IMG/VR virus record: IMGVR_UViG_3300035034_000065
Span: 1-32,275 of that record
Direction: 5' to 3' (one strand)
Origin: a virus
DNA: 32,275 bases
Part shown: positions 11,973-27,916 of the stretch, piece after piece
Layout: every line of letters begins with the position of its first letter
Numbering within the stretch: the first letter of the stretch is position 1
Program-made: the position numbers and the translations under genes
Notes under the pieces: model-generated
What the model saw: the letters and a program-made list of their open reading frames with translations, nothing else
Database searches by the model: none
Told to the model about the DNA's origin: nothing

Positions 11973-14900
11973 CTACCGGTCTTCGAACATCACAGTCCCA
12001 AGAGTATCTTCGTTAAATTGCTTTAAGTACTCCCGCATATTTTTAGAAAGGCTCACGCCGTTATACATCTCGTTTGAAGTCCTTATGTGCCCCTTCATAG
12101 AGGTTTTGATTCTATCTGGCGTTATAGCAAACTGCGGATTACGACGATTAAACTCCACCATCTCTTTAGCGGTTTCTCTAGCCGTTTTCAAATCGCCAAT
12201 GCGGATAGCAACATAATACTTCTTAGTTAGACTAGTAGCCTTCTTGTTTATAGCTTCCTCGACTCGTTTGAACCTACGTGTTTCTTCTTGCTTACGTAAG
12301 TACTCTTCTGGAGCGAACCCTATAACCTGAGATGCTATCTCTCCTGCTGACAAGTCATCGTGTACTAAGTCATAACGACGCGTTCGTATACCACCTTCTC
12401 CAGAGTACCTGAACGGTTTAAGGATATTAGATAATGCGGCAGGTGCTAGTTGCTCGAACCCACGTCGGTAGTTACCTTCTTGCAGGTCGTCTACACCTCT
12501 ATCTATGCGATTGTATATGCTTAGACCAACCCCACCGAAGACACCTGCTATTGTTTCCTCGTTCGTAGGATTCGGGTTAAACTTGTTCCCCTGCAATATT
12601 AAGTCAGTGAGGCGCATACGCACACCGGCATCTATGTCTACCCCGAAGCTTTCTAGCGCGGCGTTAACCCCACCACGGAACCAACCTTGACTTATATGAC
12701 TTTGTACAATCGTATCGAAGTCGTCCTCGTCGTCGTCACCAAACATCGCGTCGTAAATAAGCGCGACGGAGCCATATATCGGCAACCCATACACTCCCGA
12801 GAAGAACAGTGCCGTACCGTGTATACCAACAATCTGCCTAAGGGCTTCTTTGCGTTTTGTAGGGTCGTTTTTATATAGCTCTTTTACTGCATTCCTAGCT
12901 GTCTGGAACATCATGGTATACATGTGGATGCCGTAGTTCTTATACATCAACGCTACGCGCCCGATACCTTGCTGAGATAACCCAGATGCGGCTTCTAGTG
13001 TAGCACCGCCGTTTATGCGTTGGGTGTATTCGATTGCAAATTGCGCGGCTTCTGTCCTAGCACGGTTTATTGCATCGGCATCGCTCATGTCCGCACGATA
13101 CTCTTTGTATAACTTGCTATACTCCAAGTTGTAAGACGCTATCAATGTAGCTTGGCGTCCGAACCTTTCCGCTTGGCTAAACATGCCGGCACTTAAAGCA
13201 ACAAAGGTATTAATAAACCCCGTCTCTACTTCCTTGCCGCCCTCCGTTATGCCTAGAGCTTCGTTTAAGAAAGAGCTAGTTAACTGCCCTTGCTTTTTAG
13301 CCTCTAGTACCATCTGTTCGATACCTTTAAGTTGGTCCATTCTACTTTTAGGTAGTTTCAAATCTTTGCGAAGCTTTATTTTTGTCTCACCAGAAGCCTC
13401 GAAGGTAATGTCGAAGTATTCTTCTATGCCGTGGGCTATTGACCCCTTAGCTAGAGCCTTACCAGTAACAGTGTCCTCCCTAGCTACGCCACGCGCACCA
13501 AACACGATACTGCTAGCCTCGCGTATAGCTTTACTTGCTTCAGGGTATGAGTACTTGCCCCCCAACATAGGGAAAGCAACCATGGGCACTTGTGACAAGT
13601 TAACCAGTGCAGAAGCCATGTTAAAGCCGATAGTAAACACAAACGCAGTTTGGTTGATATTCTTAAATACCGCTTCCATGCCTTTGTTGTCGGCACCGTT
13701 TATAACGAAGTTAACCCGTTTATCCAGTTCTTGTTTAACCTGCATCTGGTACTTGGCTTTTGCTGGTTCGACCTTGTTGTTTACAATCTCAGTCTCTACC
13801 GTCTCCGCTAGTTCAGTTTTTAAATCCGTTAGTTCTTTAACTGCGTCTAGCCTAACCGTCTGCGTACCGTTTTGGTAACCTTTCTTGGCTAGCGCGTACC
13901 CCACGTCTTTAGAATACCCTACAGTATTATCTCTACTGCGGAACGAGTTAAGGATTGACGATTCTGGCAATGTATTTGTGTAGACATCGATAACGTCCGC
14001 TATAACGGTATCAGGTACGCCGCTATCTTTTAGCTCATTCAGCAAATCGTACATAAACGCCGTCGGCGGCACATCACTTATTTTGTTGGACTCGTTAGAA
14101 CGTCTGCGCTCTCTAACAGTGTCAGGAACATATGCGCTATCTTTTTTCAGCACCTCTATAAACTGCTTAGCCTCGGCACGACTGTCAAACTGCCTAACCA
14201 CATTAGTCGGTAAACCGCCGAAGTCACGTATCTCGTACGCCACAACAAAGTCTCCTTCCCTAACTAGCGGGAAGTACACTTCTAGCCTACCTCTTTCTAT
14301 TAGCTTCTTATTAAGTCTGTCCCTAGAGGCTTTGTTACCTGCGGCACCGGCTTTCTCCATTGTCTCTTCGATTCGACGGTTTAAGCTTTTCTCAACGTCT
14401 TTGCGCTGGTTGTCGTAGAACTCCCGCATCTCTCGATATATATTCTTAGTGCTAGGCTCCATTTTATCGAACACTTCTTTGAGCATTTTATAACTTTCGC
14501 GCTGCTCGTCCGTTTTATAATCAGATATGTCTTTCTTGTCTACGTCAACCTGCGAGATAGTGGCACCGAAATCTTCGTCATATATAAACGTGTTAAGGTA
14601 CGTACGTTGTGTTTCAGATAGTGCATTATACTTCTTAAGTAACGGACCAAGAATACCGTTAACCTTTTTCTCCATTAACTCTTGTGCGCCACGGTAGCGG
14701 TTAAAGGCTTTTAGCATGCGATGACCTATGTCACCTAGGCCGGCCCACTGCGCCATATCCGCGACTCCCTGCATCTGCAACACTCTATTAAACACGTTAG
14801 ATACCGCTTCAGGTACAGAAGTCACTAGGTCTGAGGCTTTGTTTACCCACTTCTTACGCTCGGCCACCGTGTTGAAAGTTTTGGTCTGATTGTCCATGTT

Positions 14901-17900
14901 TCTGCCGACCGTTGAAGCTACCCCGTCTGGCGTAGACTCCATTAGTAGCTCACCTGCTGGGCGTGTAGTAGGCGCTGGGTGTATAGCAGACATAATGAGG
15001 TTGTCCATCTCTGTCATTACTGACTGCGGACCCTTTACATCTATCCCTAGCTTAGTACGCATGAAATTAGCAACGGTGTTTAAGAACCTACCCCATGCGC
15101 TCATAGCAGTTCCGTCAGGACGGATACGAGATAGCATCTTCTGGAAGTCTGGATTGCTAAACGCTTCGGCTACAAACTCGTCTAGGTTTTTAGCACCGTA
15201 AGCAGAACCTAATTGGTCTTTTGATTCGGCAAATAGTTTCTCTAGTTGCTTGGTAGTTGGGTTGCTCTTGTTAGCGAGTGTCTGACTTGTTACAGCGTGT
15301 AGCACTTCGTGCAGAATCGTATGTGCGTTCATACCGTCAACGGCATCTAGGTACACTGTGTTGTTAGTAGGGTCGAAATACCCCGCTACGTCAGTACCGT
15401 CGGACGATGTTAGGTTACGCATTACAACTACTTTAGTGTCGCCTACGTTGTTTATTAGCGCGGTGACTATTCTGGTTAGCTTAGGGTCTACGATAGTTTG
15501 TTTTAGCCTAGTTAGCGCTTCGCCTAGTCTAGCGTTGTATAGTGAGGCACGTACACCAAAAGGAACTGCTTTAGCGCTTTCTAGTAAGGCGTCAACTGGT
15601 AAGTTCTTAGAGCGCATGTCCTTACGTAGGTTTTTAATACTTACGCCCAACGCTTTTATCTGGTCTTCTAGCGGTTTAACTGTTTTGGCCAAGTAGTCGC
15701 GTTTAGCTTCTCCTTTCATGCTAGAAGCTTTATCCATAGCGTTGTCATACTTGGCTTCTATTTGCTCTTTTTTGTTCTCTAACCCTGCTATCTCCACGAT
15801 TATGGTGTCGTTAGTGACCGGCACATTACGCTTGCTTAGCTCCGCGTCTTTTTTAAGGCGTGGGTCCGCAAGGTATTTTTCCACTGCCTTCTGTAAGGCA
15901 GACATGGACGGGGTTTTCTTTACAGCGGCGTAGGCTTCTTGCGCTCGCGTGAAACCAGTCCCAGCGAGTTTTTTATCGGTAGTGTTTTTTTGTTCGTTGT
16001 CATCTACCTCGAAAAATCTTTTGCCTTTATCTTTAGCGGTTCTTGGAGCCCCTTTTCTAGGTTGGCGCTCTGGGCTTTCCGACATTAAATCGAACGCGAT
16101 GCTTCTTGCCGCCATATCGACGTCACCATCAGAGGCATCCATATACTTATCAAACGAAGCTTTTTCTTTTGCCGAGGCAGTAGAGTCCTGCGTAGTTACC
16201 TTATTAGCCGCGGTTTTTACATCACTTTCTGTCCTAACCGGTGCTTCCGCCACCGCAGGTTCGTTCTTCTTGCCCGTACGATTAACGCTTACACCCCGTG
16301 AAGCGTTCCGCTCTTTTTTAGTCTGCGACTCCGTTTTCTTAGGGGTAGGAGCTTTCGCCGCCGGCTTAGTAGTCTTAACAGGTTCGGATTTCTTAGCAAC
16401 CGGTGCAGGTTTAGGTGCTTCTTTCTTAGCAACCGGTGCGGGTTTAGGTGCAGGTTTAGGTGCTTCTTTCTTAGCAACCGGTGCAGGTTTAGGTGCTTCT
16501 TTCTTTGCCACAGGCTTAGCAGGTTCGGCTTTCTTAGCAACCGGTGCAGGTTCGGCTTTCTTAGCAACCGGTGCAGGTTTAGCTGGTACTACTTTCCCCG
16601 CGAAAATATTTCTTACTCGTTTACTAACGCGTCTTTGTGACTTCCCTGCTTGAACCACGCGGTCTAAGTAGGCTTTTTGTTTCTGGGAGGTAGTGGCATC
16701 GGGCATTGCCGTTACTACGGCTTCAGCAACGCGGTCTTCGAAGCTGGTCTTTTCCACTAAGGTCATATCCGCCCATGGTTTAGGTTCCACTACACTATCT
16801 ATCATTTTTCGAGCACGAGCGTTCGCGGCTCTCTGCCCAGTAACTTGGCTCTGCCCAGAAGGTGCCTTGCTAGGTGTTTCTGGTGCCTCTATATCAGCGG
16901 CTTGTATCGCTTGTTGTTCTGCTTGGGCGTCGGCATCTTCTTTCTGAAGCGCCTCTACTATGCCTGAAGCACGTTTTAGTTTCTCGAACTCAGGTTCCGT
17001 TAAGGTAGTGTCTTGCAACCCTCCGGCTTTCATACGGTCTACAACCGCCCGTCGTAGCCTATTAACGTTAGTTTCTTCGGGTATGGAGGCCAATGTGTCT
17101 TCTATAATTTTATCGCGTCTTTGTTGTGACTTGTTACGTTGAGAAGTCTCTAATAATTCAGTAGTAACAGGTACAGTCGCTTCAAACTCTTGTGCCGCTT
17201 GTTGTTCTTGTTGTTCTTGTTGCGCTCGTTGTTCTTGTTCCGCGGCATCGTTTTGTTCTTGCTCTAGCAAACCTGCAAATTCGGCTTCCTCAACTACGTC
17301 CAACTGGCGCGTACGTGCATCTTCAGCAAACAACTCATCTACTTGTTCTTGCTCGGTGGGCTGTGCCATCTGCTCTTGGCGTTGCCGCTCTTGCTCTTTA
17401 CGTTGTAAGTTCTGAGCTAGATTTTGACCGCGCTCGGCGGCGAACATGTCTTGTTGTTCGCCGGGCACCAGCGATTCGTTACGCAACTGCGTTTGTCTAT
17501 CTAGTTCAAGTTGTTGTTCTGGACTGATACGTTCCGGCGCTTGTTGTGGCGCAGTAGGTTCGTTTCTACGGTTCTCGATGCGCTGTTCCGCTTGAGCTAA
17601 ACCAGCAATGCCAGTTTTGGGGATTTGAGGTTGTTGGGCACGTAGGCGTTCTAACCTAGATAAGCGTGGGTCTAAGTCCGCTTCTTCCCCAACATCGGGG
17701 GTATCGTCGCCCTCTTCAGCTTTAGCCATCATAGCGCCGACACTATCTTCATCCCACTCGTCAGGTATTTGCGATCCTATTTCTTGCTTTTGTTCGGGAG
17801 TTAACGGTGTCTGCTGCTGGGTTTGTGCAGGCGCAGTAGGGCTTGGTGATGTTGGTGAAGTACCCTCATTCTGCGGGGTTTCAGTGCGTTTTGGAGTGTT

Positions 17901-18755
17901 GGCTGACCTTCTTCCCCCTAACAAGTCAAGGGCACCTTGGAATATAGCACCTGAGATACCTCCGATAGTGCCTTCTTCCGCGACGGCGGCATCGAACAAT
18001 ACACGCTCCGCGTTATACCCCTGTTCAATAAGGTTCTGTCCTACAGCAGCAACGACTTCTTGTGCGCCCTCTGCTAGTGCTGTTTGCCCCATACGCCCGG
18101 GAGCTGTTTCTGCCAACCTTTGGAGTCGGGTCTGCGCTTGTTCGATAACTTCATCGGGCACTTTACCGCGGATACGGTTAATAGACTTAAATATTTTAGC
18201 TAGTGGCGCGGCTTCTAACGCACCTAAAGGCAGTGCTTTAATAATAGAAGTGTTTCGTTCTTCTTCCGTTGAGCCAAAGTCACGGGCGCGTTCACTCGCT
18301 TCCCCCGCTGCGGCGGCGATACCTAGCCCTGCGGCTACCGGCAATGCGGCTTTTCCTGCGAACGCGGCGGGTATAAAAGCACCTATAGAGCCTAAGCCCC
18401 CACCAATCTTCTGCGACCAGCTATCAGGATCACCACGTTGTTCCACCCCAAAGAAATCTTGGATACCTTCACGGTTACGCAGTTCTTGTTCTTCGTCGAA
18501 CAAAGCATTAGCACCTAGAGCGCCTGTCTCTAAAGTGCCCATAAAACCTTGCTTTAGTCCTTGCCCTAGATTACCTATCATCCCGACTTCTTCGGTATTT
18601 GCTAAGGTGGAGTTTATAATACTCAAGGCATCGCTACCCATCATACCGCTCTCTATTAAGCTTACCTCTGCAACTCTAGCTATAGACTCTACCGCCTCGG
18701 TGTTCCCTGCTGATTTAGCTCGTTTTAGGGCTTCTAGATATTGTTCTGGGCTCAT
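11973..18755 (-). CDS. Giant polyvalent/ejection virion protein with zincin and PLxRFG-like domains
   Basis: 2260 residues, the last gene of the leftward operon; GGAG upstream of the ATG lies inside the previous gene's end. In order: a Gly/Ala-rich amphipathic region (about 60-290); a Gln/Glu-rich disordered stretch (about 290-560); Lys-Ala-Pro repeats (about 720-795); a zinc metallopeptidase-like domain with HEVLHAV (His1149, Glu1150, His1153) and LDEFVAEAF, where Glu1193 or Glu1197 would be the third ligand; then a long helical region with hydrophobic segments. Near the end, PAALSNILKPFRYSGEGG (about 2105) resembles the PLxRFG domain of phage polyvalent proteins. Such proteins are packaged and injected with the DNA (compare T7 gp16). 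A peptidoglycan or host-protein target is unproven. Confidence 0.85.
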   Translation of the reverse strand: MSPEQYLEALKRAKSAGNTEAVESIARVAEVSLIESGMMGSDALSIINSTLANTEEVGMIGNLGQGLKQGFMGTLETGALGANALFDEEQELRNREGIQDFFGVEQRGDPDSWSQKIGGGLGSIGAFIPAAFAGKAALPVAAGLGIAAAAGEASERARDFGSTEEERNTSIIKALPLGALEAAPLAKIFKSINRIRGKVPDEVIEQAQTRLQRLAETAPGRMGQTALAEGAQEVVAAVGQNLIEQGYNAERVLFDAAVAEEGTIGGISGAIFQGALDLLGGRRSANTPKRTETPQNEGTSPTSPSPTAPAQTQQQTPLTPEQKQEIGSQIPDEWDEDSVGAMMAKAEEGDDTPDVGEEADLDPRLSRLERLRAQQPQIPKTGIAGLAQAEQRIENRRNEPTAPQQAPERISPEQQLELDRQTQLRNESLVPGEQQDMFAAERGQNLAQNLQRKEQERQRQEQMAQPTEQEQVDELFAEDARTRQLDVVEEAEFAGLLEQEQNDAAEQEQRAQQEQQEQQAAQEFEATVPVTTELLETSQRNKSQQRRDKIIEDTLASIPEETNVNRLRRAVVDRMKAGGLQDTTLTEPEFEKLKRASGIVEALQKEDADAQAEQQAIQAADIEAPETPSKAPSGQSQVTGQRAANARARKMIDSVVEPKPWADMTLVEKTSFEDRVAEAVVTAMPDATTSQKQKAYLDRVVQAGKSQRRVSKRVRNIFAGKVVPAKPAPVAKKAEPAPVAKKAEPAKPVAKKEAPKPAPVAKKEAPKPAPKPAPVAKKEAPKPAPVAKKSEPVKTTKPAAKAPTPKKTESQTKKERNASRGVSVNRTGKKNEPAVAEAPVRTESDVKTAANKVTTQDSTASAKEKASFDKYMDASDGDVDMAARSIAFDLMSESPERQPRKGAPRTAKDKGKRFFEVDDNEQKNTTDKKLAGTGFTRAQEAYAAVKKTPSMSALQKAVEKYLADPRLKKDAELSKRNVPVTNDTIIVEIAGLENKKEQIEAKYDNAMDKASSMKGEAKRDYLAKTVKPLEDQIKALGVSIKNLRKDMRSKNLPVDALLESAKAVPFGVRASLYNARLGEALTRLKQTIVDPKLTRIVTALINNVGDTKVVVMRNLTSSDGTDVAGYFDPTNNTVYLDAVDGMNAHTILHEVLHAVTSQTLANKSNPTTKQLEKLFAESKDQLGSAYGAKNLDEFVAEAFSNPDFQKMLSRIRPDGTAMSAWGRFLNTVANFMRTKLGIDVKGPQSVMTEMDNLIMSAIHPAPTTRPAGELLMESTPDGVASTVGRNMDNQTKTFNTVAERKKWVNKASDLVTSVPEAVSNVFNRVLQMQGVADMAQWAGLGDIGHRMLKAFNRYRGAQELMEKKVNGILGPLLKKYNALSETQRTYLNTFIYDEDFGATISQVDVDKKDISDYKTDEQRESYKMLKEVFDKMEPSTKNIYREMREFYDNQRKDVEKSLNRRIEETMEKAGAAGNKASRDRLNKKLIERGRLEVYFPLVREGDFVVAYEIRDFGGLPTNVVRQFDSRAEAKQFIEVLKKDSAYVPDTVRERRRSNESNKISDVPPTAFMYDLLNELKDSGVPDTVIADVIDVYTNTLPESSILNSFRSRDNTVGYSKDVGYALAKKGYQNGTQTVRLDAVKELTDLKTELAETVETEIVNNKVEPAKAKYQMQVKQELDKRVNFVINGADNKGMEAVFKNINQTAFVFTIGFNMASALVNLSQVPMVAFPMLGGKYSYPEASKAIREASSIVFGARGVAREDTVTGKALAKGSIAHGIEEYFDITFEASGETKIKLRKDLKLPKSRMDQLKGIEQMVLEAKKQGQLTSSFLNEALGITEGGKEVETGFINTFVALSAGMFSQAERFGRQATLIASYNLEYSKLYKEYRADMSDADAINRARTEAAQFAIEYTQRINGGATLEAASGLSQQGIGRVALMYKNYGIHMYTMMFQTARNAVKELYKNDPTKRKEALRQIVGIHGTALFFSGVYGLPIYGSVALIYDAMFGDDDEDDFDTIVQSHISQGWFRGGVNAALESFGVDIDAGVRMRLTDLILQGNKFNPNPTNEETIAGVFGGVGLSIYNRIDRGVDDLQEGNYRRGFEQLAPAALSNILKPFRYSGEGGIRTRRYDLVHDDLSAGEIASQVIGFAPEEYLRKQEETRRFKRVEEAINKKATSLTKKYYVAIRIGDLKTARETAKEMVEFNRRNPQFAITPDRIKTSMKGHIRTSNEMYNGVSLSKNMREYLKQFNEDTLGTVMFEDR
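16378..16584 (-). repeat. Lys-Ala-Pro repeat array in the giant virion protein
   Basis: Roughly 33-base units built on TTAGCAACCGGTGCAGGTTT (plus-strand reading) encode repeated PAPVAKKEAPK-like segments. Units vary by whole-codon insertions and deletions. The resulting basic, proline-spaced tail resembles histone H1-type low-complexity sequence and could bind DNA or serve as a flexible linker. Confidence 0.8.
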
Positions 18756-18760
18756 GTAAT

Positions 18761-20608
18761 CTACTCCATACCTAACATACTTCTAGCGGCTGCATCACCT
18801 TGACTACGTTCTTCCGCAGAAAGCTGAGGTGCGGTCTGCCCAGACTTGTCTACGGTCGCCCCAAACGAAGTACCCATCATTTCCACTAACTGAGCTACTA
18901 GTTGACCTGCCGGACTGTTGTCAAACTCTTCTTGTAGAGCTTGTATTTCTCGCAGCATCGATGTTCTCTCTTCTGGGCTAGCTTCGCTATACTCTGCTTG
19001 CCACATGGGGTCTGCCATTTTAGAGTTACGCAAAGAACCATACCCAGCCTGCACTTTAAGTAGCAACTCTGTTACTTCGGTAATAGAATCCCTATCCATC
19101 ATTGCTCGTTGGAAAGACTCCTTACTAATAATACCCATACGCTGCATTTCGGCCCTTATCTGCTCTGCCAGTGCTTGCCCTTGTACCTGCAACCTGTCGC
19201 GTTGGGCGTTCTGGTCCATCTGATTCTGGATAGTATCCGCTTGCTGTTCAGAGTTTACGCTAGTACTAAGCATCTTAGCCCGCTCACTTTGCTCTGTAGT
19301 AAGCGTTTTATACATCTCTTGACCCAAATTCATAACCTTGTTTTCTAGGTCTGCCATACCACTAAACTTGGTATTCGTTGCGTCGAACAACTCTTTAGCA
19401 GCACGGTTAGCGCTCTCTTGCTGCTGAGACATTTTAGCCAAGCTAGTCTGAGCGCTTTTTGCAAACGCAGCACCGGGACTAGAAGAACCTGCCATAGACG
19501 AGAGCCCCGCTATTATGCGGTCAAACGCCTGCTTGCTAGGGTCGTTCTGAGCATCGTAGTTATCCTGCATACGTTCTAAATTCTTCTGCATAGCGTCACG
19601 GTACTCGTCTACGTATAGACGCTTACGCGCATCTTTTTCCACTGCTTCCACTTCGGTCTGTATATCTGCACCTGAGCGTCTCTGGGCTAGGTCGTCGCCC
19701 ATAGCGGTTTTCACTTCCTCGGTTAGGTCACCACGACTGGTGCGTTGTGGAGCTTTATACTGACCGCCTAACCCTTTAAGCTCATCTACTAATTCGTTAA
19801 CACGCGTCATGTCTACGTTAGGTACACTAGCAGTAGTCGTAGAACTCTTATTAATAAGTGGGTCTATCGTCGGCGAAGTAGGTTTTTTATCGGCGTCTGT
19901 TTTCGGTTGTCCTTCGGCACTCAACGGAGTTTTTTGCTCTGCAGTGGGCGCTAGGGGAGGTCTAGGTTGCCCACTTTCTTCTCCCCATCTCTGTAAGTAA
20001 GCGTCGACTTCAGGTCCGAATTTACTTTCAAAATACTCGTCCCCTACCATAAATTTGCCAACGCCTTCCGCGGCTTTAGCGACACCTCTGCGTTGCATTC
20101 TATTAAGTTCTGCCAGCGCACTTGGAACACTTGCGTATATCCCCAATACCCCACCTAACTCAGCGCGTTTTTCTTCTTCGGTTTTACCGTCCGCTTGTCC
20201 GCCCTCACGGAATTTCTGCACCCTACCTCCACTGCGGTAGGCCATAGCCCCTATACCATTTTGTTGTGGCTGGCTAGCGCTTTGGGCCATCTGTTGGACA
20301 GCCTGTTGCTCTCTAGCCAGCTTCTTCTGGAGCTCCGTACCTACTTGTTGGGCAACTTCTTCTTGTTTGCGCCCGAACACTTCGGATTCTAACTGGGCAC
20401 CTATACTAGATATCCCACCTTGCCCAGCATTTTGCTTTGCGACTTGTTGTTGCATGTCCATAGCAATAGCATCTTGTTCGCGTTTCATTTTACTGAGCGC
20501 GAGTAGTTTTGCTAGGTTCATATCTAACCCATAAGACTTTTTGAGGTCATCTTCTTTACCTTTGTACTGATTAGCGTACTGCGACGCCATGTTGTCGATG
20601 CCAGCCAT
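18761..20608 (-). CDS. Probable internal virion protein, Gln-rich and helical
   Basis: 615 residues. Its ATG shares a base with the stop of the upstream gene (TAATG at 20608). The first 110 residues are helical and Gln-rich (AIAMDMQQQVAKQN; LAREQQAVQQMAQSASQ). A short Gly/Arg patch follows (MAYRSGGRVQKFREGGQ), then a Pro/Thr-rich linker (about 215-260) and a long coiled-coil-like region to about 560. It has no signal peptide or catalytic motif. The composition and the position just before the giant ejection protein are those of podovirus internal core proteins (as T7 gp14 to gp16). This is inference from context, not homology. Confidence 0.65.
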   Translation of the reverse strand: MAGIDNMASQYANQYKGKEDDLKKSYGLDMNLAKLLALSKMKREQDAIAMDMQQQVAKQNAGQGGISSIGAQLESEVFGRKQEEVAQQVGTELQKKLAREQQAVQQMAQSASQPQQNGIGAMAYRSGGRVQKFREGGQADGKTEEEKRAELGGVLGIYASVPSALAELNRMQRRGVAKAAEGVGKFMVGDEYFESKFGPEVDAYLQRWGEESGQPRPPLAPTAEQKTPLSAEGQPKTDADKKPTSPTIDPLINKSSTTTASVPNVDMTRVNELVDELKGLGGQYKAPQRTSRGDLTEEVKTAMGDDLAQRRSGADIQTEVEAVEKDARKRLYVDEYRDAMQKNLERMQDNYDAQNDPSKQAFDRIIAGLSSMAGSSSPGAAFAKSAQTSLAKMSQQQESANRAAKELFDATNTKFSGMADLENKVMNLGQEMYKTLTTEQSERAKMLSTSVNSEQQADTIQNQMDQNAQRDRLQVQGQALAEQIRAEMQRMGIISKESFQRAMMDRDSITEVTELLLKVQAGYGSLRNSKMADPMWQAEYSEASPEERTSMLREIQALQEEFDNSPAGQLVAQLVEMMGTSFGATVDKSGQTAPQLSAEERSQGDAAARSMLGME

Positions 20609-21450
20609 TAGCTACCCCCTCCAAGAATCCCGAAGTCCCTAAGGAGCCCAGCGATACCTCCGGTAGAGGACATAATCTGCCCAAAATCACTAGGCGGCGT
20701 ATATGCATAACTCTGCGCTTGAATTGGCAAGCCCTGTAAAAGGGACTGCATAAACTGTGTTTGTTTGTACGGGTACATCATCTCTTGTTCAAACTGCATA
20801 CGGTCAGCATCTACACCTTGCTGTTCTATATTGCGTTGTAAATCACCCGCGTTTAGCTGAGTGTTTAATCCGGCTAACCCGTACTGCTGGTTCTGCCCAG
20901 CGGCGTTTAGCCCCAACTGTTGTTCAGTATTAAACTGGTCAGCACCTTGATTGTACGCGTTCAAATACCCCGTATTTAATGTTTGGGCCATTTGGTCTTG
21001 TAGGTTACGGTCCATCTCAGCATTCATAACCGCTTGTCTTGAACCACCAAACGCACCTGCCTGTGATAGCTGGCTGTTTTGTTGAGTGCGACTTATGTCT
21101 GATTGTCGTCTTAACTCGTCAAGTTGTGGCTGTAGAGCGCTCTGCAGGTAGGGGTTCATAAACTGTTGTGACGTTCCCGCGTCTGTGAACGAACCCGGTG
21201 AGAAGTTAGTCTGTGAAGAGTCAGGCATAGATAGCCCGGCCAAACCCTGAAACGCTTGGTTTTGTAACCCACTCTGCCCAGCCGTTAGCGGCCCTTGGTA
21301 TGCTTGGTACGGGCTATTAGCTAGTGCTTGCCCTCTCCCTAGCATGTCAGTTACATACGGCCCCGCCCAATTAGATAACGAGGATTCTTGCCCGGTAGCT
21401 GTACCAGCTAATGGGTCTAAAGCATTTGCCGCACCTGTATTTGTAGCCAT
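20608..21450 (-). CDS. Probable internal virion/tail protein, Gln/Ala-rich
   Basis: 280 residues with a GAGGT ribosome binding site upstream. The sequence is Gly/Ala/Gln/Asn-rich: an N-terminal low-complexity part (ALANSPYQAYQGPLTAGQSG), a central helical section (LDELRRQSDISRTQQNSQLS, then GAFGGSRQAVMNAEMDRNL) with repeated aromatic-Asn spacing, and a hydrophobic Gly-rich end (GGIAGLLRDFGILGGGS). Proteins of this style occur beside ejection proteins in marine phages and are usually annotated only as structural. No enzymatic motif is present. It is coupled to the next gene by a one-base overlap. Confidence 0.6.
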   Translation of the reverse strand: MATNTGAANALDPLAGTATGQESSLSNWAGPYVTDMLGRGQALANSPYQAYQGPLTAGQSGLQNQAFQGLAGLSMPDSSQTNFSPGSFTDAGTSQQFMNPYLQSALQPQLDELRRQSDISRTQQNSQLSQAGAFGGSRQAVMNAEMDRNLQDQMAQTLNTGYLNAYNQGADQFNTEQQLGLNAAGQNQQYGLAGLNTQLNAGDLQRNIEQQGVDADRMQFEQEMMYPYKQTQFMQSLLQGLPIQAQSYAYTPPSDFGQIMSSTGGIAGLLRDFGILGGGS

Positions 21451-21461
21451 AGTTTACCTCG

Positions 21462-22214
21462 TTACCCTAACATCTTTCTGGGGTCAATTTGTTTGCCTTG
21501 GTCCGGATTTCCCGTACGCTCTTTCCGTATTTTAGCAAGTACTTGCTCTAAGTACTTTGCGCCAGCTTCTGAGTTACCATTACCTAAGTGACTTACTACA
21601 TCAGCAGGTATAACAAACTCTCCATCGCTAAGTCTAGCAGGTTCGGCATCGTCTATGGTAGCAGGAACTTTGTCAGCCATTCCGTCAGTGCTACCACGTA
21701 GATACTTTTGCTCCCCCGCAAGTGAGGCTAAGCCGCCTTCTGCAAATATTTGTTCTTGTACAGGTGCAGGGTCGCCGGGCTGTGTAGCTGCGCCGGGTCC
21801 CGGTTGAGTTTGTTGTGATGCTAACCCTGCTGCGCCGGATTGTAACGTTCCGTCTTGCGTGAATGCGCCGTCAGTAAAGTATCGACGCCCCGCAGAACCC
21901 GGTCTTCTATCTCCGCTAGGTTGCGGTAATTGTTCGCGGTTATAAGTGTAATTAGGTATCCCGCCTTGGTAACCCACGGGGCGCTGTTCTACATCATTAC
22001 CGCCTAAAAACTGAGTTAACCCTGCGAGCCCTAAACCTGTAGCTAACGAGCCAGTGCCGCCATCGGTAACAGTATCAAAAACATCCCCTGCAGTGCCCGC
22101 TATCCAGTCCCATATACTGGAACCGCCAGAAGTACTAGCGCTCGATGGGGGAGCAACAGGGCTACCTATTAAATTCTGTAATTCCGCAACCTGTTCTGGG
22201 GTTAAATATGCCAT
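21462..22214 (-). CDS. Virion-associated protein with conserved 'LSDGEFVIPADVV' C-terminal domain
   Basis: 250 residues; GAGGG precedes the ATG and overlaps the stop region of the upstream gene. The N-terminal half is Gly/Ser-rich with a short hydrophobic patch (LATGLGLAGLTQFLGG). The middle is Pro/Gln-rich. The C-terminal 80 residues contain STDGMADKVPATID, then ARLSDGEFVIPADVVSHLGN and GAKYLEQVLAKIRKERTG. I recognise this segment as a recurrent module in marine phage virion genes, of unknown function. The order of its neighbours suggests a tail or internal protein. Confidence 0.65.
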   Translation of the reverse strand: MAYLTPEQVAELQNLIGSPVAPPSSASTSGGSSIWDWIAGTAGDVFDTVTDGGTGSLATGLGLAGLTQFLGGNDVEQRPVGYQGGIPNYTYNREQLPQPSGDRRPGSAGRRYFTDGAFTQDGTLQSGAAGLASQQTQPGPGAATQPGDPAPVQEQIFAEGGLASLAGEQKYLRGSTDGMADKVPATIDDAEPARLSDGEFVIPADVVSHLGNGNSEAGAKYLEQVLAKIRKERTGNPDQGKQIDPRKMLG

Positions 22215-22220
22215 AACTAA

Positions 22221-24575
22221 TTACCCTCTAAGTAATCTTATTAAATCTTCTACATTATTATGACTAACTATACCACCTTGGTTATAATTTAGTCGCTTTA
22301 ATTTTTCATCTTCTAGCGCCCCCGATAACGTTAGAGCATCTAAGTCAAACAGTTCCCCTAGCTCTACTAGTGCCGCTTCCTCAGGGGTGTACATGCCGGG
22401 GTTTGCAATGCCAGTAGACGTTGGTCCACCTAGTAACCCTAGCAACCTCGAGAGGTCAACATCTGGCAGGTCAACATCTGGCAGGTCAACATCTGGCAGG
22501 TCAACATCTGGTAAGTCTGGTAAGTTTACGTCAGGTAAGTTTACGTCAGGTAAGTTTACGTCAGGTAAGTTTACGTCAGGTATAGCCTCACGGATGTCTC
22601 TTCCTATCTCGCGTACTGTATCCGCTGTAGCGTCAATAGCCGGCTGTATAACTTCGCGGTTTACGGTACTTGCACCTTCTTCTGCTGCGTCTAACACAGG
22701 GCGGATAACTTCACGGTTTACATCACTAGCTAGCTCTTCAGTAGTATCTAACACAGGGCGGATAACTTCACGGTTTACTGTGCTAGCCCCTTCCTCTACT
22801 GTGTCTAGAATGGGTTGGGTAACATTATCATCAAACTCTCGCCCAGCTTCACGTAACCCATCTTCGATAAACCCTAAGTCAGGGTCTGGTAGGTCAGGCA
22901 CCATGCCTTCTAAAAACTCTTTAACCGGTTGCAATACAGAGTCGTCAAAATCCCTACCTAACTCACGTAACCCATCTTCTATCCACCCTAGGTCTGCACC
23001 GTCGCCTACATCTAAATCAGGCAGGTTAGGTATTAATTCCCCAAGAAACTCTTTTATATCTTCTGCATCGCCGCCTTGGTCTACGTACTCTTTAACCCCG
23101 TTAAACAAAGCATCTGAGGCAACGCCGTTTTCACCGTATTCGGCAACGGCTTCCACTACCCCTAACCCAAAAGCTTGCCCGTTCTGAGTGCCAGAAAATA
23201 GTTGGTCTGCTACGGTAGCACCATACCTTTCAGCTAAAGAATCCCCAAGATTGCGTCCCGCGGCTTGGTCTAATAAGGTAGCAGTGAACGCTCCATCTGC
23301 AGTTAGAGCATTGGCAACGTCGCTGTTGAATATCTCCGTGAGCCCCTGATTTAAAGTGTCGTCGATGTCGATGAACTCCGCAATATCATCGCCGAACAGA
23401 CTTATTGCCGCCTGTATGGGGTTACCACCTTGGTCTACAATGTTTGCGAACTGGGCGACATTATCCACGTTACTTGCTATGTTTACTGCGCTCTGCAAGG
23501 AGCTTATCTGATTCGTTAATTCGGCCACCTGTGCAGTGTTCCCCGCAGTCTGTGCGGCATCTAACGCAGTCTGTGCGCTGCTTAACTCACTAGCCAACCC
23601 ACTAGCGTATCCCGACAAACCACTCAGCGTTGCTGCACGGAGTATATCCCCCACACCGCCACCTTGAAGTCCCGTGACTGTGCCACTTACAACGGCATTG
23701 GATACGCCCGTTGCACCCGCTGTCCCAAACCCTGTTATAGTGCCCGCCAGTGGAGTAAGCGCTGCGGCGAGAGGTAGCATAACCGCCGCCATCCCGATGA
23801 TTTGACCGGGTTTAGGTTTTAGGCTTACTTTAGAATATTTTAACGTCTCAGGGTCTAACGCCCACACTTCCGTGTCGCTTATAGGAATCCTCTGCGGTAT
23901 GTTATACCGCTGTATTACGTCGCTCCCTAGTTCATAACTTTCGTTTGCCCAGAAATCGTCATACCCTTGCTCTTGGTTTGCCGCCGCCGCTTGTATGTCT
24001 TGCAGTTCTTGTCTAGCCGCGATGTCGTCGCCATGGTATCTTCTTATTTCATCGTTAAGTTCAGGAGCTACGTCTGCACTTATGTTACTAGCGTTAGCAA
24101 ATAAGTTGCCCAAGTCGGATGTATCTATCTGTGGGGCGTTGGTAGTACTAATCCTATCCTTCAGAAGGTCTATCTCTGAAATTTCCTGTACAGGCGGTTG
24201 CGTCGGTGGTGTAGTTACAATAGGCTGGGTACGGGAACCATCATCTGGACGTTTCTCGGTGGGTGCAGTAGGCATGGGGTCTACTATGTTACCTGATGCG
24301 GGAGGTGTTGGGCTCTGTACCGGCGGCGACGTCACAATAGGTTGCGTACGGGACCCATCATCCGGACGTTTCTCGACAGGTGCAGGTATAAGCGCAGGTG
24401 TTTGTTGGGCAGCCGCAATACCCTCTGGCATCGGCGCAATGGCATTTAAAGGGTTAAGTGTTTGTTGGGCAGCCGCAATACCCTCTGGCATCGGCGCTAT
24501 GGCACTTGAAGGATTAGGTGGCATATAACTGCCCTCTATACCGAATAAATCCTGTAGTTCTAAATCAGTAAACAT
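22221..24575 (-). CDS. Large repeat-containing probable virion protein with LPDV arrays
   Basis: 784 residues; a GGGGGTG ribosome binding site lies within the upstream gene's end. N-terminal duplications include IAPMPEGIAAAQQT twice and EKRPDDGSRTQPIV twice. A hydrophobic Gly/Ala segment (IIGMAAVMLPLAAALTPLAG, about 255-290) could insert into a membrane. Helical and acidic parts follow (GFIEDGLREAGREFDD repeated), then about four VNREVIxPVLDxxEE units (590-640) and two arrays of LPDVN and LPDVD pentapeptides (about 664-707). No family is recognised. The hydrophobic segment and its place among ejection-type genes suggest an internal or tail-channel protein; a spacer or tape-like role is possible but unproven. 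Confidence 0.65.
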   Translation of the reverse strand: MFTDLELQDLFGIEGSYMPPNPSSAIAPMPEGIAAAQQTLNPLNAIAPMPEGIAAAQQTPALIPAPVEKRPDDGSRTQPIVTSPPVQSPTPPASGNIVDPMPTAPTEKRPDDGSRTQPIVTTPPTQPPVQEISEIDLLKDRISTTNAPQIDTSDLGNLFANASNISADVAPELNDEIRRYHGDDIAARQELQDIQAAAANQEQGYDDFWANESYELGSDVIQRYNIPQRIPISDTEVWALDPETLKYSKVSLKPKPGQIIGMAAVMLPLAAALTPLAGTITGFGTAGATGVSNAVVSGTVTGLQGGGVGDILRAATLSGLSGYASGLASELSSAQTALDAAQTAGNTAQVAELTNQISSLQSAVNIASNVDNVAQFANIVDQGGNPIQAAISLFGDDIAEFIDIDDTLNQGLTEIFNSDVANALTADGAFTATLLDQAAGRNLGDSLAERYGATVADQLFSGTQNGQAFGLGVVEAVAEYGENGVASDALFNGVKEYVDQGGDAEDIKEFLGELIPNLPDLDVGDGADLGWIEDGLRELGRDFDDSVLQPVKEFLEGMVPDLPDPDLGFIEDGLREAGREFDDNVTQPILDTVEEGASTVNREVIRPVLDTTEELASDVNREVIRPVLDAAEEGASTVNREVIQPAIDATADTVREIGRDIREAIPDVNLPDVNLPDVNLPDVNLPDLPDVDLPDVDLPDVDLPDVDLSRLLGLLGGPTSTGIANPGMYTPEEAALVELGELFDLDALTLSGALEDEKLKRLNYNQGGIVSHNNVEDLIRLLRG
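22453..22578 (-). repeat. Two 15-bp tandem arrays encoding LPDVD and LPDVN
   Basis: Array 1 (22453-22512) is four units of AGGTCAACATCTGGC, with one end variant. Array 2 (22519-22578) is four identical units of GGTAAGTTTACGTCA. On the minus strand they encode LPDVD and LPDVN pentapeptides using almost entirely different synonymous codons. Units are contiguous without spacers, so this is not a CRISPR array. Confidence 0.95.
24398..24517 (-). repeat. 60-bp direct duplication near the start of the 784-residue gene
   Basis: Bases 24401-24437 recur identically at 24461-24497, a 60-base period spanning 24398-24517. The repeat encodes IAPMPEGIAAAQQT and its flank twice. A second, more diverged pair (near 24225 and 24340) encodes EKRPDDGSRTQPIV twice. 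Confidence 0.85.
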
Positions 24576-27113: not shown

Positions 27114-27515
27114 TTATTGGCTTTTATAAGCCCTGTATCCCAGACCTGCTACAATAGTAACCCCGAGTAGTTCTTGGTAGTTAGGCACTAAATCCTTAAC
27201 TGCGTTGTTCGCTTCAACGGCGGCCATCATGTATTCAGGGTTACCAAGAAGCGTCCCAAGGAACGCGGCAAAAAACGTAGTTACTAGAGGCAAGGTCATA
27301 ATAACAGTAATGTACTCGTCCTTCCACGTAGCACCTTCGTTGCGTTTGGCAATCATGTCTATTTCTTGCTCATTAAACACGACTTGCTTTTCGCCTGACT
27401 CTTTCGCTTGCGCTATTTTCCCGTCTATAGCCCTAGCTTGCATCTTGCGGGTTTCTCGCTTATTAAAGAAACCTCCAACGACTTCTGCTATGCCGACAAT
27501 AGGGTTCCAGTTCAT
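27114..27515 (-). CDS. Putative holin
   Basis: 133 residues beginning at an ATGA overlap with the DUF5675-like gene and with no separate ribosome binding site, so translation is probably coupled. The N-terminus is amphipathic (NWNPIVGIAEVVGGFFNKRE), followed by a charged helix. Then comes a membrane segment (YITVIMTLPLVTTFFAAFLG, about 68-90) and a second hydrophobic stretch (LLGVTIVAGLGYRAY) near the end. Gene size, the WKDEYITVIMTLPL motif and adjacency to a peptidoglycan-type gene fit phage holins of the GTA/3TM type. It may have two or three membrane segments; the function is inferred. Confidence 0.6.
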   Translation of the reverse strand: MNWNPIVGIAEVVGGFFNKRETRKMQARAIDGKIAQAKESGEKQVVFNEQEIDMIAKRNEGATWKDEYITVIMTLPLVTTFFAAFLGTLLGNPEYMMAAVEANNAVKDLVPNYQELLGVTIVAGLGYRAYKSQ

Positions 27516-27916
27516 AATTTACGACTACTATCTGTTACGATTACCTTGCCTTTCTCGGCGGCAATCTTCATAAGGTGTTTAAACGTTGCGTCACTGTTGC
27601 CAACGTCGGGTATACCATCCTTGTCAATGTCTTTAATCATATCCCCGACCAACACACACCCTTGTATCTGATGCGTGAAGTTCCCTGCGTGTATGTATAT
27701 CCACGTTCGCCCTTCGACATCTTTTATGTGGATAACCCAGCCCAGCGTAGGAGATAGGCGTTTTTCATACTCATACGAACCTGATGGTATACAAGACACG
27801 TTTGATGCGTTTCTAAGCCAAGGCAACTCTAAGGTGAAGCAACGAAAGTCGCCGCACTGTAAAATACCGATGGTGCAATCCCGCGCAATCGCGCTGTTGA
27901 TTATTATCGTACTCAT
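27512..27916 (-). CDS. DUF5675-like protein, possible cell-wall enzyme, with a Ca-binding-like loop
   Basis: 134 residues; GAGGGGGA lies about 10 bases before the ATG, which overlaps the upstream stop (ATGA). Features match DUF5675: CFTLELPWLRNASNVSCIPS (about 26-45), GRTWIYIHAGNF (His76) and QGCVLVGD (Cys87). The His...GC spacing recalls the HGT...SHGC site of L,D-transpeptidases, suggesting peptidoglycan activity, but the family's reaction is not established. An unusual insert, DIDKDGIPD (Asp96, 98, 100, 104), has the DxDxDGxxD spacing of a calcium-binding loop. Placed between holin- and spanin-like genes, it is the best endolysin candidate in the window. Confidence 0.7.
   Translation of the reverse strand: MSTIIINSAIARDCTIGILQCGDFRCFTLELPWLRNASNVSCIPSGSYEYEKRLSPTLGWVIHIKDVEGRTWIYIHAGNFTHQIQGCVLVGDMIKDIDKDGIPDVGNSDATFKHLMKIAAEKGKVIVTDSSRKL

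What the first reader, a model, noticed from the sequence alone, without database searches (positions are those of the whole stretch)
11973..18755. 2260-residue ejection protein carrying an intact-looking zinc peptidase
The HEVLHAV motif and a downstream LDEFVAEAF make a complete gluzincin-type site inside a protein that ends in a PLxRFG-like domain. This fits 'polyvalent' proteins thought to be injected with the DNA. An active protease delivered at the moment of entry could cut host defence or cell-wall proteins, or process the virion itself.
Basis: partly seen in the sequence, partly recalled or inferred. Interest (0 to 1): 0.65.

Follow-up and report, generated by a model that had tools for sequence, protein, structure and literature searches.

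The report
Zinc protease inside phage ejection protein
This short-tailed phage encodes a 2,260-residue protein, very likely packed in the virus and pushed into the bacterium with the DNA, that carries a complete zinc-protease site; the same site is kept unchanged in distantly related phages, including well-studied ones whose version has been labelled as a cell-wall enzyme.

Summary
Minus-strand ORF 11973-18755 encodes 2,260 residues with HEVLH at 1149-1153 and a downstream Glu (E1193, in LDEFVAEAF). In an HMM-collected family reaching Autographiviridae, Schitoviridae and Crassvirales, those four residues are the only columns that never vary: 25 of 25 sequences below 40% identity, median pair identity 21%, median column conservation 0.24. 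A 20-sequence AlphaFold2 model shows the zincin order of secondary structure, core pLDDT about 90. The C-terminus passes NCBI's PLxRFG cut-off (6e-90). The gene follows a '280 aa (DNA-ejection family) - 615 aa - giant' cassette, the T7 gp14-15-16 order. The profile matches solved virion proteins with all ligands kept: phiKMV gp37 (9SFN), PhiM1 tetrameric ejection protein (8VB2), a virion RNA polymerase (11FW) and gp10 (23SG). The PhiM1 paper calls this region 'endolysin-like'; here it reads as a gluzincin. Iyer et al. (2017) predicted zincin peptidases in injected 'polyvalent' proteins, so this is a new member of a known kind. The useful addition is the link to solved ejectosomes. Zinc binding, proteolysis and substrate remain untested; I favour action after ejection, most likely on ejected proteins, next on host proteins.

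The parts
11973..18755 (-). Giant gene, 2260 aa: gp16-type internal virion/ejection protein with zincin domain and PLxRFG C-terminus
17886..18425 (-). Residues 111-290: Ala/Gly-rich, hydrophobic N-terminal region, conserved in the family; candidate membrane-inserting segment
   Evidence: hydropathy peaks 124-142, 171-189; phmmer hits down to 4.5e-40 in distinct relatives
15906..17885 (-). Residues 291-950: poorly conserved linker, Ala/Gln/Glu/Pro/Lys-rich; the 33-45 bp repeats at 16389-16582 encode AKKEAPKP-type repeats
14919..15572 (-). Residues 1062-1279: gluzincin (zincin-like metallopeptidase) domain
15297..15311 (-). HEVLH, residues 1149-1153: two zinc-ligand His and general-base E1150
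15198..15200 (-). Y1186, seven residues before E1193; Tyr in 60-82% of relatives; possible auxiliary catalytic residue
15177..15179 (-). E1193, third zinc ligand, invariant in the family
14343..14567 (-). LPD39 (large polyvalent protein associated domain 39) match, residues 1397-1471
12036..14282 (-). Residues 1492-2240: PLxRFG (tail-700) domain, mostly long helices in the model
18761..20608 (-). 615-aa gene upstream, in the position of T7 gp15 (tunnel protein); weakly conserved relatives at the same place in other contigs
20608..21450 (-). 280-aa 'DNA ejection protein' (phrog_4287), in the position of T7 gp14
21462..22214 (-). 250-aa gene of unknown function, conserved with the cassette

Best explanation
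The gene encodes the gp16-position internal core (ejection) protein of a podovirus. It is packed in the capsid, leaves through the tail ahead of the DNA, and refolds at the inner membrane with its helical C-terminal hub on the cytoplasmic side. Its central domain is an intact gluzincin: H1149 and H1153 plus E1193 hold zinc, E1150 activates water. The peptidase acts after ejection on protein; the substrate I favour is the ejected complex itself (its own long linker or partner ejection proteins), freeing or remodelling the delivered hub. SHOWN here: the ORF, the invariant four-residue site, the zincin order of secondary structure, the PLxRFG C-terminus, the ejection-type gene order, and homology of the domain to solved virion/ejection proteins. 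INFERRED: presence in this virion, ejection, zinc binding, activity, timing, substrate. My step estimates: intact site 0.97; virion/ejected 0.85; active peptidase 0.8; acts after ejection 0.65; ejected proteins rather than host proteins as substrate about 0.55 of that.
For: HEHE is 100% invariant in 68, 45 and 25 sequences at 90/60/40% identity cut-offs (one truncated row aside) against a median column conservation of 0.39/0.33/0.24. All 51 complete ORFs matching the C-terminal profile also hold the domain, duplicate loci counted. dN/dS of the domain is 0.03-0.15 in 11 close pairs and below that of the N-terminal region in all 11. Profile against PDB: 9sfn_G 7e-22, 8vb2_A 1e-14, 23sg_S 7e-9, 11fw_A 2e-5, all with HExxH plus Glu in the alignment. 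phiKMV gp37 (H423, E424, H427, E496) matches 9SFN_G over its full length. PhiM1 gp48 has H385, E386, H389, E449. phi14:2 g065 is annotated from MS/MS proteomics. Cassette order and its conservation in other contigs. Model core pLDDT about 90 with helix-3 strands-HExxH helix-Glu helix. BFVD fold matches include 'internal core protein' of PAO1_Ab05 (1e-11), phi14:2 structural protein (1e-10) and internal virion protein D of CRP-5 (2e-8). PhiM1 gp48 is modelled in the virion (PMC11440229); N4 virion RNAP is packaged unprocessed (PMC5512222).
Against: No zinc, activity or virion data for this phage. A folded autoprotease should also cut while the virion is being assembled, yet relatives are full-length in virions, so a trigger or a trans substrate is needed. 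The solved hubs were not matched by the C-terminal profile, and PDB fold searches gave nothing significant (best gluzincin hit E 0.15), so the gp16 assignment rests on gene order, size and the shared domain. The viral-library matches to named internal core proteins have low TM-scores (0.22-0.38) and may be driven by the zincin domain.
Confidence: 0.5

Rival explanations
1. Injected effector: the gluzincin cuts one or more host proteins (defence, transcription or envelope proteins) in the newly entered cell.
For: The site is conserved while the rest of the domain diverges to about 21% identity, compatible with changing targets. Relatives sit full-length in virions, so a substrate outside the virion is natural (PMC11440229; PMC5512222). 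Some relatives carry two copies of the domain. The weak fold/profile similarity to a known effector-type gluzincin is compatible but not significant.
Against: Phages of Bacteroidota (Crassvirales) and of several Pseudomonadota groups share the domain without an obvious shared host target; there is no substrate evidence.
Confidence: 0.3
2. Virion maturation: the peptidase cleaves its own or other head proteins before or during packaging.
For: Phage P1 DdrB, a polyvalent protein with a C-terminal zincin domain, is processed to about 76 kDa before packaging (PMC5512222). The long unconserved linker (291-950) could be a cleavage region.
Against: PhiM1 gp48 carries the same domain and is modelled in the virion as a tetramer; N4 virion RNAP is packaged unprocessed (PMC11440229, PMC5512222).
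Confidence: 0.1
3. Cell-wall enzyme: the domain opens peptidoglycan (peptide cross-links, or as the 'endolysin-like' domain reported for PhiM1 gp48) so that the ejected channel can pass.
For: T7 gp16 carries a muralytic domain, and the PhiM1 paper names residues 268-528 endolysin/exotransglycosidase-like from BLASTP and DALI. No transglycosylase or lysozyme domain was found in the genes of this window's cassette.
Against: YIMV22061's gp16-position protein has a true SLT transglycosylase (16-118, 9e-17) AND this zincin (H609). In phiKMV the lysozyme motif is annotated in the neighbour gp36. No Pfam muralytic family hits PhiM1 gp48 or this domain. By analogy with T7 gp16 the domain would sit on the cytoplasmic side.
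Confidence: 0.07
4. Structural domain only: zinc or the fold stabilises the ejection protein and no peptide bond is cut.
For: In N4 the region with the domain is needed for encapsidation (PMC5512222), and no proteolysis by such a domain is reported in the ejectosome papers read. Degenerate first copies exist (L004, L031, L032).
Against: E1150, the general base and not a zinc ligand, is as invariant as the ligands; a purely structural site would tolerate its loss.
Confidence: 0.08

Closest known systems
phiKMV gp37 (Autographiviridae; PDB 9SFN_G), listed as gp16-like in PMC8954989
   Same: Last gene of a gp35-36-37 ejection cassette; same zincin domain with H423, E424, H427, E496
   Different: 1337 aa against 2260; different C-terminus by sequence; GenBank annotation reads 'endolysin domain'
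Pectobacterium phage PhiM1 tetrameric ejection protein gp48 (PDB 8VB2; PMC11440229)
   Same: Same domain with H385, E386, H389, Y442, E449, including the Tyr-to-Glu spacing of seven
   Different: Its authors call the region endolysin/exotransglycosidase-like; 1263 aa; no PLxRFG end
Polyvalent-protein MPTase domains (Iyer et al. 2017, PMC5512222), in particular the N4 virion RNA polymerase type
   Same: HExxH plus Glu on a later helix, three strands before it; members hit phrog_2206 'virion RNA polymerase' in 8 of 9 cases; LPD39 present
   Different: No RNA polymerase or other recognised catalytic domain here; the zincin is the only one found
Cellulophaga phage phi14:2 g065 (Crassvirales), annotated from MS/MS proteomics in its record
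   Same: Same domain (H245, E246, H249, E296), next to the virion RNAP gene
   Different: 1421 aa separate protein beside the polymerase
PLxRFG / DarB-like giant proteins (Serratia phage Parlo; prophages of Acinetobacter, Rhodobacterales, Burkholderiales)
   Same: C-terminal 750-850 residues
   Different: Often 3,000+ aa with methylase/helicase-type annotations; prophage forms mostly carry HExxH motifs outside this zincin clade, or none

Membership tests
Gluzincin metallopeptidases | HExxH helix | tested here: met
   H1149-E1150-H1153, invariant; helix 100-116 of the model
Gluzincin metallopeptidases | Third ligand Glu on a later helix | tested here: met
   E1193, invariant; helix 147-156 of the model
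Gluzincin metallopeptidases | Ligands converge in space and bind zinc | not testable with these tools
   No coordinates are returned; no metal assay
Gluzincin metallopeptidases | Fold match to a solved gluzincin | tested here: inconclusive
   Best gluzincin match E 0.15, probability 0.54; sequence profile hits to solved phage proteins are strong
Polyvalent proteins (Iyer 2017) | Very large protein with MPTase and LPD-type domains, encoded among virion genes | tested here: met
   2260 aa, zincin plus LPD39 over cut-off, late-gene cassette
Polyvalent proteins (Iyer 2017) | Several catalytic domains of unlike activity | tested here: not met
   Only the zincin is recognised here; of four relatives scanned with Pfam three showed only LPD39 and one nothing
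Polyvalent proteins (Iyer 2017) | Delivered into the host with DNA | not testable with these tools
   Relatives are virion proteins
T7 gp16-like ejection proteins | Third and largest gene of a gp14-gp15-gp16-like operon | tested here: met
   280 aa (phrog_4287), 615 aa, 2260 aa in order; conserved in other contigs
T7 gp16-like ejection proteins | Hub fold shared with solved gp16/TEP | tested here: inconclusive
   No PDB hit by profile or fold; BFVD matches to internal core proteins and IVP D at low TM-score
T7 gp16-like ejection proteins | Putative membrane segments | tested here: inconclusive
   Hydropathy peaks at 124-142, 171-189, 1703-1731 and 1975-2000, modest in height
PLxRFG domain proteins (NF032893) | Score above curated cut-off | tested here: met
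   302.6 bits against 100

The most novel reading that the evidence does not exclude
A single clade of zinc peptidase is a shared working part of the genome-ejection machinery of otherwise unrelated short-tailed phages (phiKMV- and PhiM1-type ejectosomes, virion-RNA-polymerase phages, crAss-like phages and PLxRFG podoviruses), so that proteolysis after ejection is a general and overlooked step of DNA entry, and domains labelled 'endolysin' in solved ejectosomes are proteases.
Probability: 0.3. Interest if true: 0.75.

Novelty: new member of a known kind. Interest (0 to 1): 0.48.

Why it matters
Peptidases in injected phage proteins were predicted in 2017, and I found no experimental test of their role in the papers read. 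Linking this domain to phiKMV gp37 and PhiM1 gp48, whose structures are solved, and to N4 gp50, which grows on laboratory E. coli K-12, turns the prediction into a direct test: look for zinc in existing maps and change one catalytic residue. It also questions an 'endolysin-like' label in an ejectosome paper and in phage annotations. The 2022 review of ejection proteins (PMC8954989) does not contain the words protease or peptidase.

Tried and rejected
Plus-strand reading of the interval: full of stops. Chance motif: rejected by invariance. Decayed site: rejected; the family-wide HEHE is intact, and degenerate copies occur only as extra first copies in L004, L031 and L032. Literal PLxRFG motif: not present, though the family model matches. 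Pfam alone does not find the peptidase in this protein (weak matches only). PDB fold searches of both models gave no significant match. C-terminal and 280-aa profiles gave no PDB match. The statement 'PLxRFG end always goes with this zincin' holds for the 51 complete viral-contig and phage ORFs but not for more distant prophage forms. Rfam and tRNA scans were empty.

Full report
WHAT IS THERE. The window is a 32,275-base virus record. The ORF at 11973-18755 lies on the minus strand, 2260 aa, no stop. HEVLH occupies residues 1149-1153 and LDEFVAEAF 1191-1199. From its own composition the protein would be expected to hold 0.005 HExxH motifs. A near-identical copy (L001, 98.9% over 26 kb) differs in the gene by 11 amino-acid and 21 silent codon changes plus short indels; no codon within residues 1062-1279 differs.

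THE SITE IS A REAL GLUZINCIN SITE. In a first set of nine sequences, the relatives 18-37% identical to the window domain, the only invariant columns were H1149, E1150, H1153 and E1193. An iterated HMM then collected the domain from PhiM1, phiA41, PG11, phi14:2, cr116_1, FpV4, Parlo, several Autographiviridae and many IMG/VR contigs. After removing redundancy at 90, 60 and 40% identity, 68, 45 and 25 sequences remain; the four residues are invariant in all (one row is truncated at the first two), while the median column is only 39, 33 and 24% conserved. E1150 is not a zinc ligand, so its invariance speaks for catalysis. The next best positions are F1204, F1194, G1141 and L1208; Y1186 follows. 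Y1186 is seven residues before E1193; from my own knowledge that is the spacing of the auxiliary Tyr and third ligand in anthrax lethal factor, the solved gluzincin that profile and fold searches bring up nearest the top, weakly. Y1186 is not invariant (60-82%). In 11 pairs of close relatives dN/dS is 0.03-0.15 in the domain, lower than in the N-terminal region of the same protein every time.

STRUCTURE. AlphaFold2 with 20 sequences gives helix, three strands, HExxH helix, insert helix, Glu-bearing helix, with pLDDT about 90 across the core. That is the order Iyer et al. describe for the polyvalent MPTase (PMC5512222). I could not measure the geometry of the site, because coordinates are not returned. 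A 47-sequence model of residues 1050-2240 (mean pLDDT 77, pTM 0.66) shows a mostly helical C-terminal half.

ARCHITECTURE. N-terminal hydrophobic Ala/Gly-rich region (111-290), conserved; poorly conserved, repeat-bearing linker (291-950); zincin (1062-1279); LPD39 (1397-1471); PLxRFG domain (1492-2240; 6e-90). No other catalytic domain was recognised. All 51 complete ORFs in the sampled loci that match the C-terminal profile also carry the zincin (duplicate loci of one contig are included). More distant prophage PLxRFG giants carry HExxH motifs outside this clade, or none.

CONTEXT. Upstream on the same strand lie a 280-aa protein of phrog_4287 'DNA ejection protein', then a 615-aa protein, then the giant. 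The 280-aa protein finds relatives in 44 fetched loci and the 615-aa protein in 20. This is the small-middle-large order of gp14-gp15-gp16 described for podoviruses (PMC8954989). Prophage relatives of the C-terminus lie mainly in Pseudomonadota, so a Gram-negative host is likely; this is inference.

LINK TO SOLVED EJECTOSOMES. The domain profile hits four solved proteins with all four residues kept: 9sfn_G 'internal virion protein', 8vb2_A 'tetrameric ejection protein (gp48)', 23sg_S 'gp10', 11fw_A 'virion DNA-directed RNA polymerase'. phiKMV gp37 matches 9sfn_G over 1-1337 at 2931 bits and carries H423, E424, H427, E496. PhiM1 gp48 carries H385, E386, H389, E449. The PhiM1 paper names residues 268-528 an endolysin/exotransglycosidase-like domain (PMC11440229), and phiKMV gp37 is annotated 'internal virion protein with endolysin domain'. 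Pfam finds no muralytic domain in PhiM1 gp48. YIMV22061, by contrast, has a genuine SLT domain at 16-118 and a separate zincin at 609 in one gp16-position protein. So this domain is not simply a stand-in for the cell-wall enzyme.

HOW IT MOST LIKELY WORKS. The protein is packed, ejected, refolds at the inner membrane, and the peptidase cuts protein after ejection. Against maturation cleavage: PhiM1 gp48 is modelled in the virion and N4 virion RNAP is packaged unprocessed (PMC11440229; PMC5512222). In T7 gp16 the region after the first membrane segment is placed in the cytoplasm (PMC8954989); by analogy this zincin would be cytoplasmic, which disfavours peptidoglycan. Between ejected proteins and host proteins as substrate the evidence does not decide. 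I favour ejected proteins, because the domain is shared by phages of very different hosts; the opposing point is that a folded autoprotease should also act during assembly.

COMPARISON AND NOVELTY. Iyer et al. (2017) reported zincin-like MPTases in about 36% of polyvalent proteins, noted the one in N4 virion RNAP, and listed self-processing and host targeting as options. The N4 structure preprint notes the HExxH motif in the C1 domain without further analysis in the passages found (PMC12633501). This window is therefore a new member of a known kind. I found no paper in the held library that names the phiKMV gp37 or PhiM1 gp48 domain a peptidase, but subscription journals and the supplementary lists of the 2017 paper could not be read.

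Noticed in passing
L038:2198-5989 (PhiM1 gp48, PDB 8VB2): The domain published as endolysin/exotransglycosidase-like (268-528) carries a complete gluzincin signature H385, E386, H389, Y442, E449.
   Followed up: partly
L139:7567-11580 (phiKMV gp37, PDB 9SFN): Annotated 'internal virion protein with endolysin domain'; carries the same zincin with H423, E424, H427, E496.
   Followed up: partly
L044:4381-9111 (Limnohabitans phage YIMV22061): One 1576-aa protein has both a lytic transglycosylase (16-118) and the zincin (H609).
   Followed up: partly
L004, L031, L032 (first copy near residues 750-880); L017, L034, L011, L039: Some relatives carry two HExxH domains; in L004, L031 and L032 the first copy has lost the motif (DAQVIH / DGQVIH).
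   Followed up: partly
L125-L138: Prophage PLxRFG giants (3,000+ aa) carry other HExxH motifs such as HEWFH and HEIIH, or none: several peptidase clades may share one C-terminus.
   Followed up: no
window 22453-22793 and 24398-24520: Tandem repeats in the 784-aa virion-region gene (15-bp LPDVN/LPDVD-type, 57-bp and 60-bp units).
   Followed up: no
window 27512-27916 (-): 134-aa DUF5675 protein among the genes between virion and tail-fibre genes; function not known.
   Followed up: no
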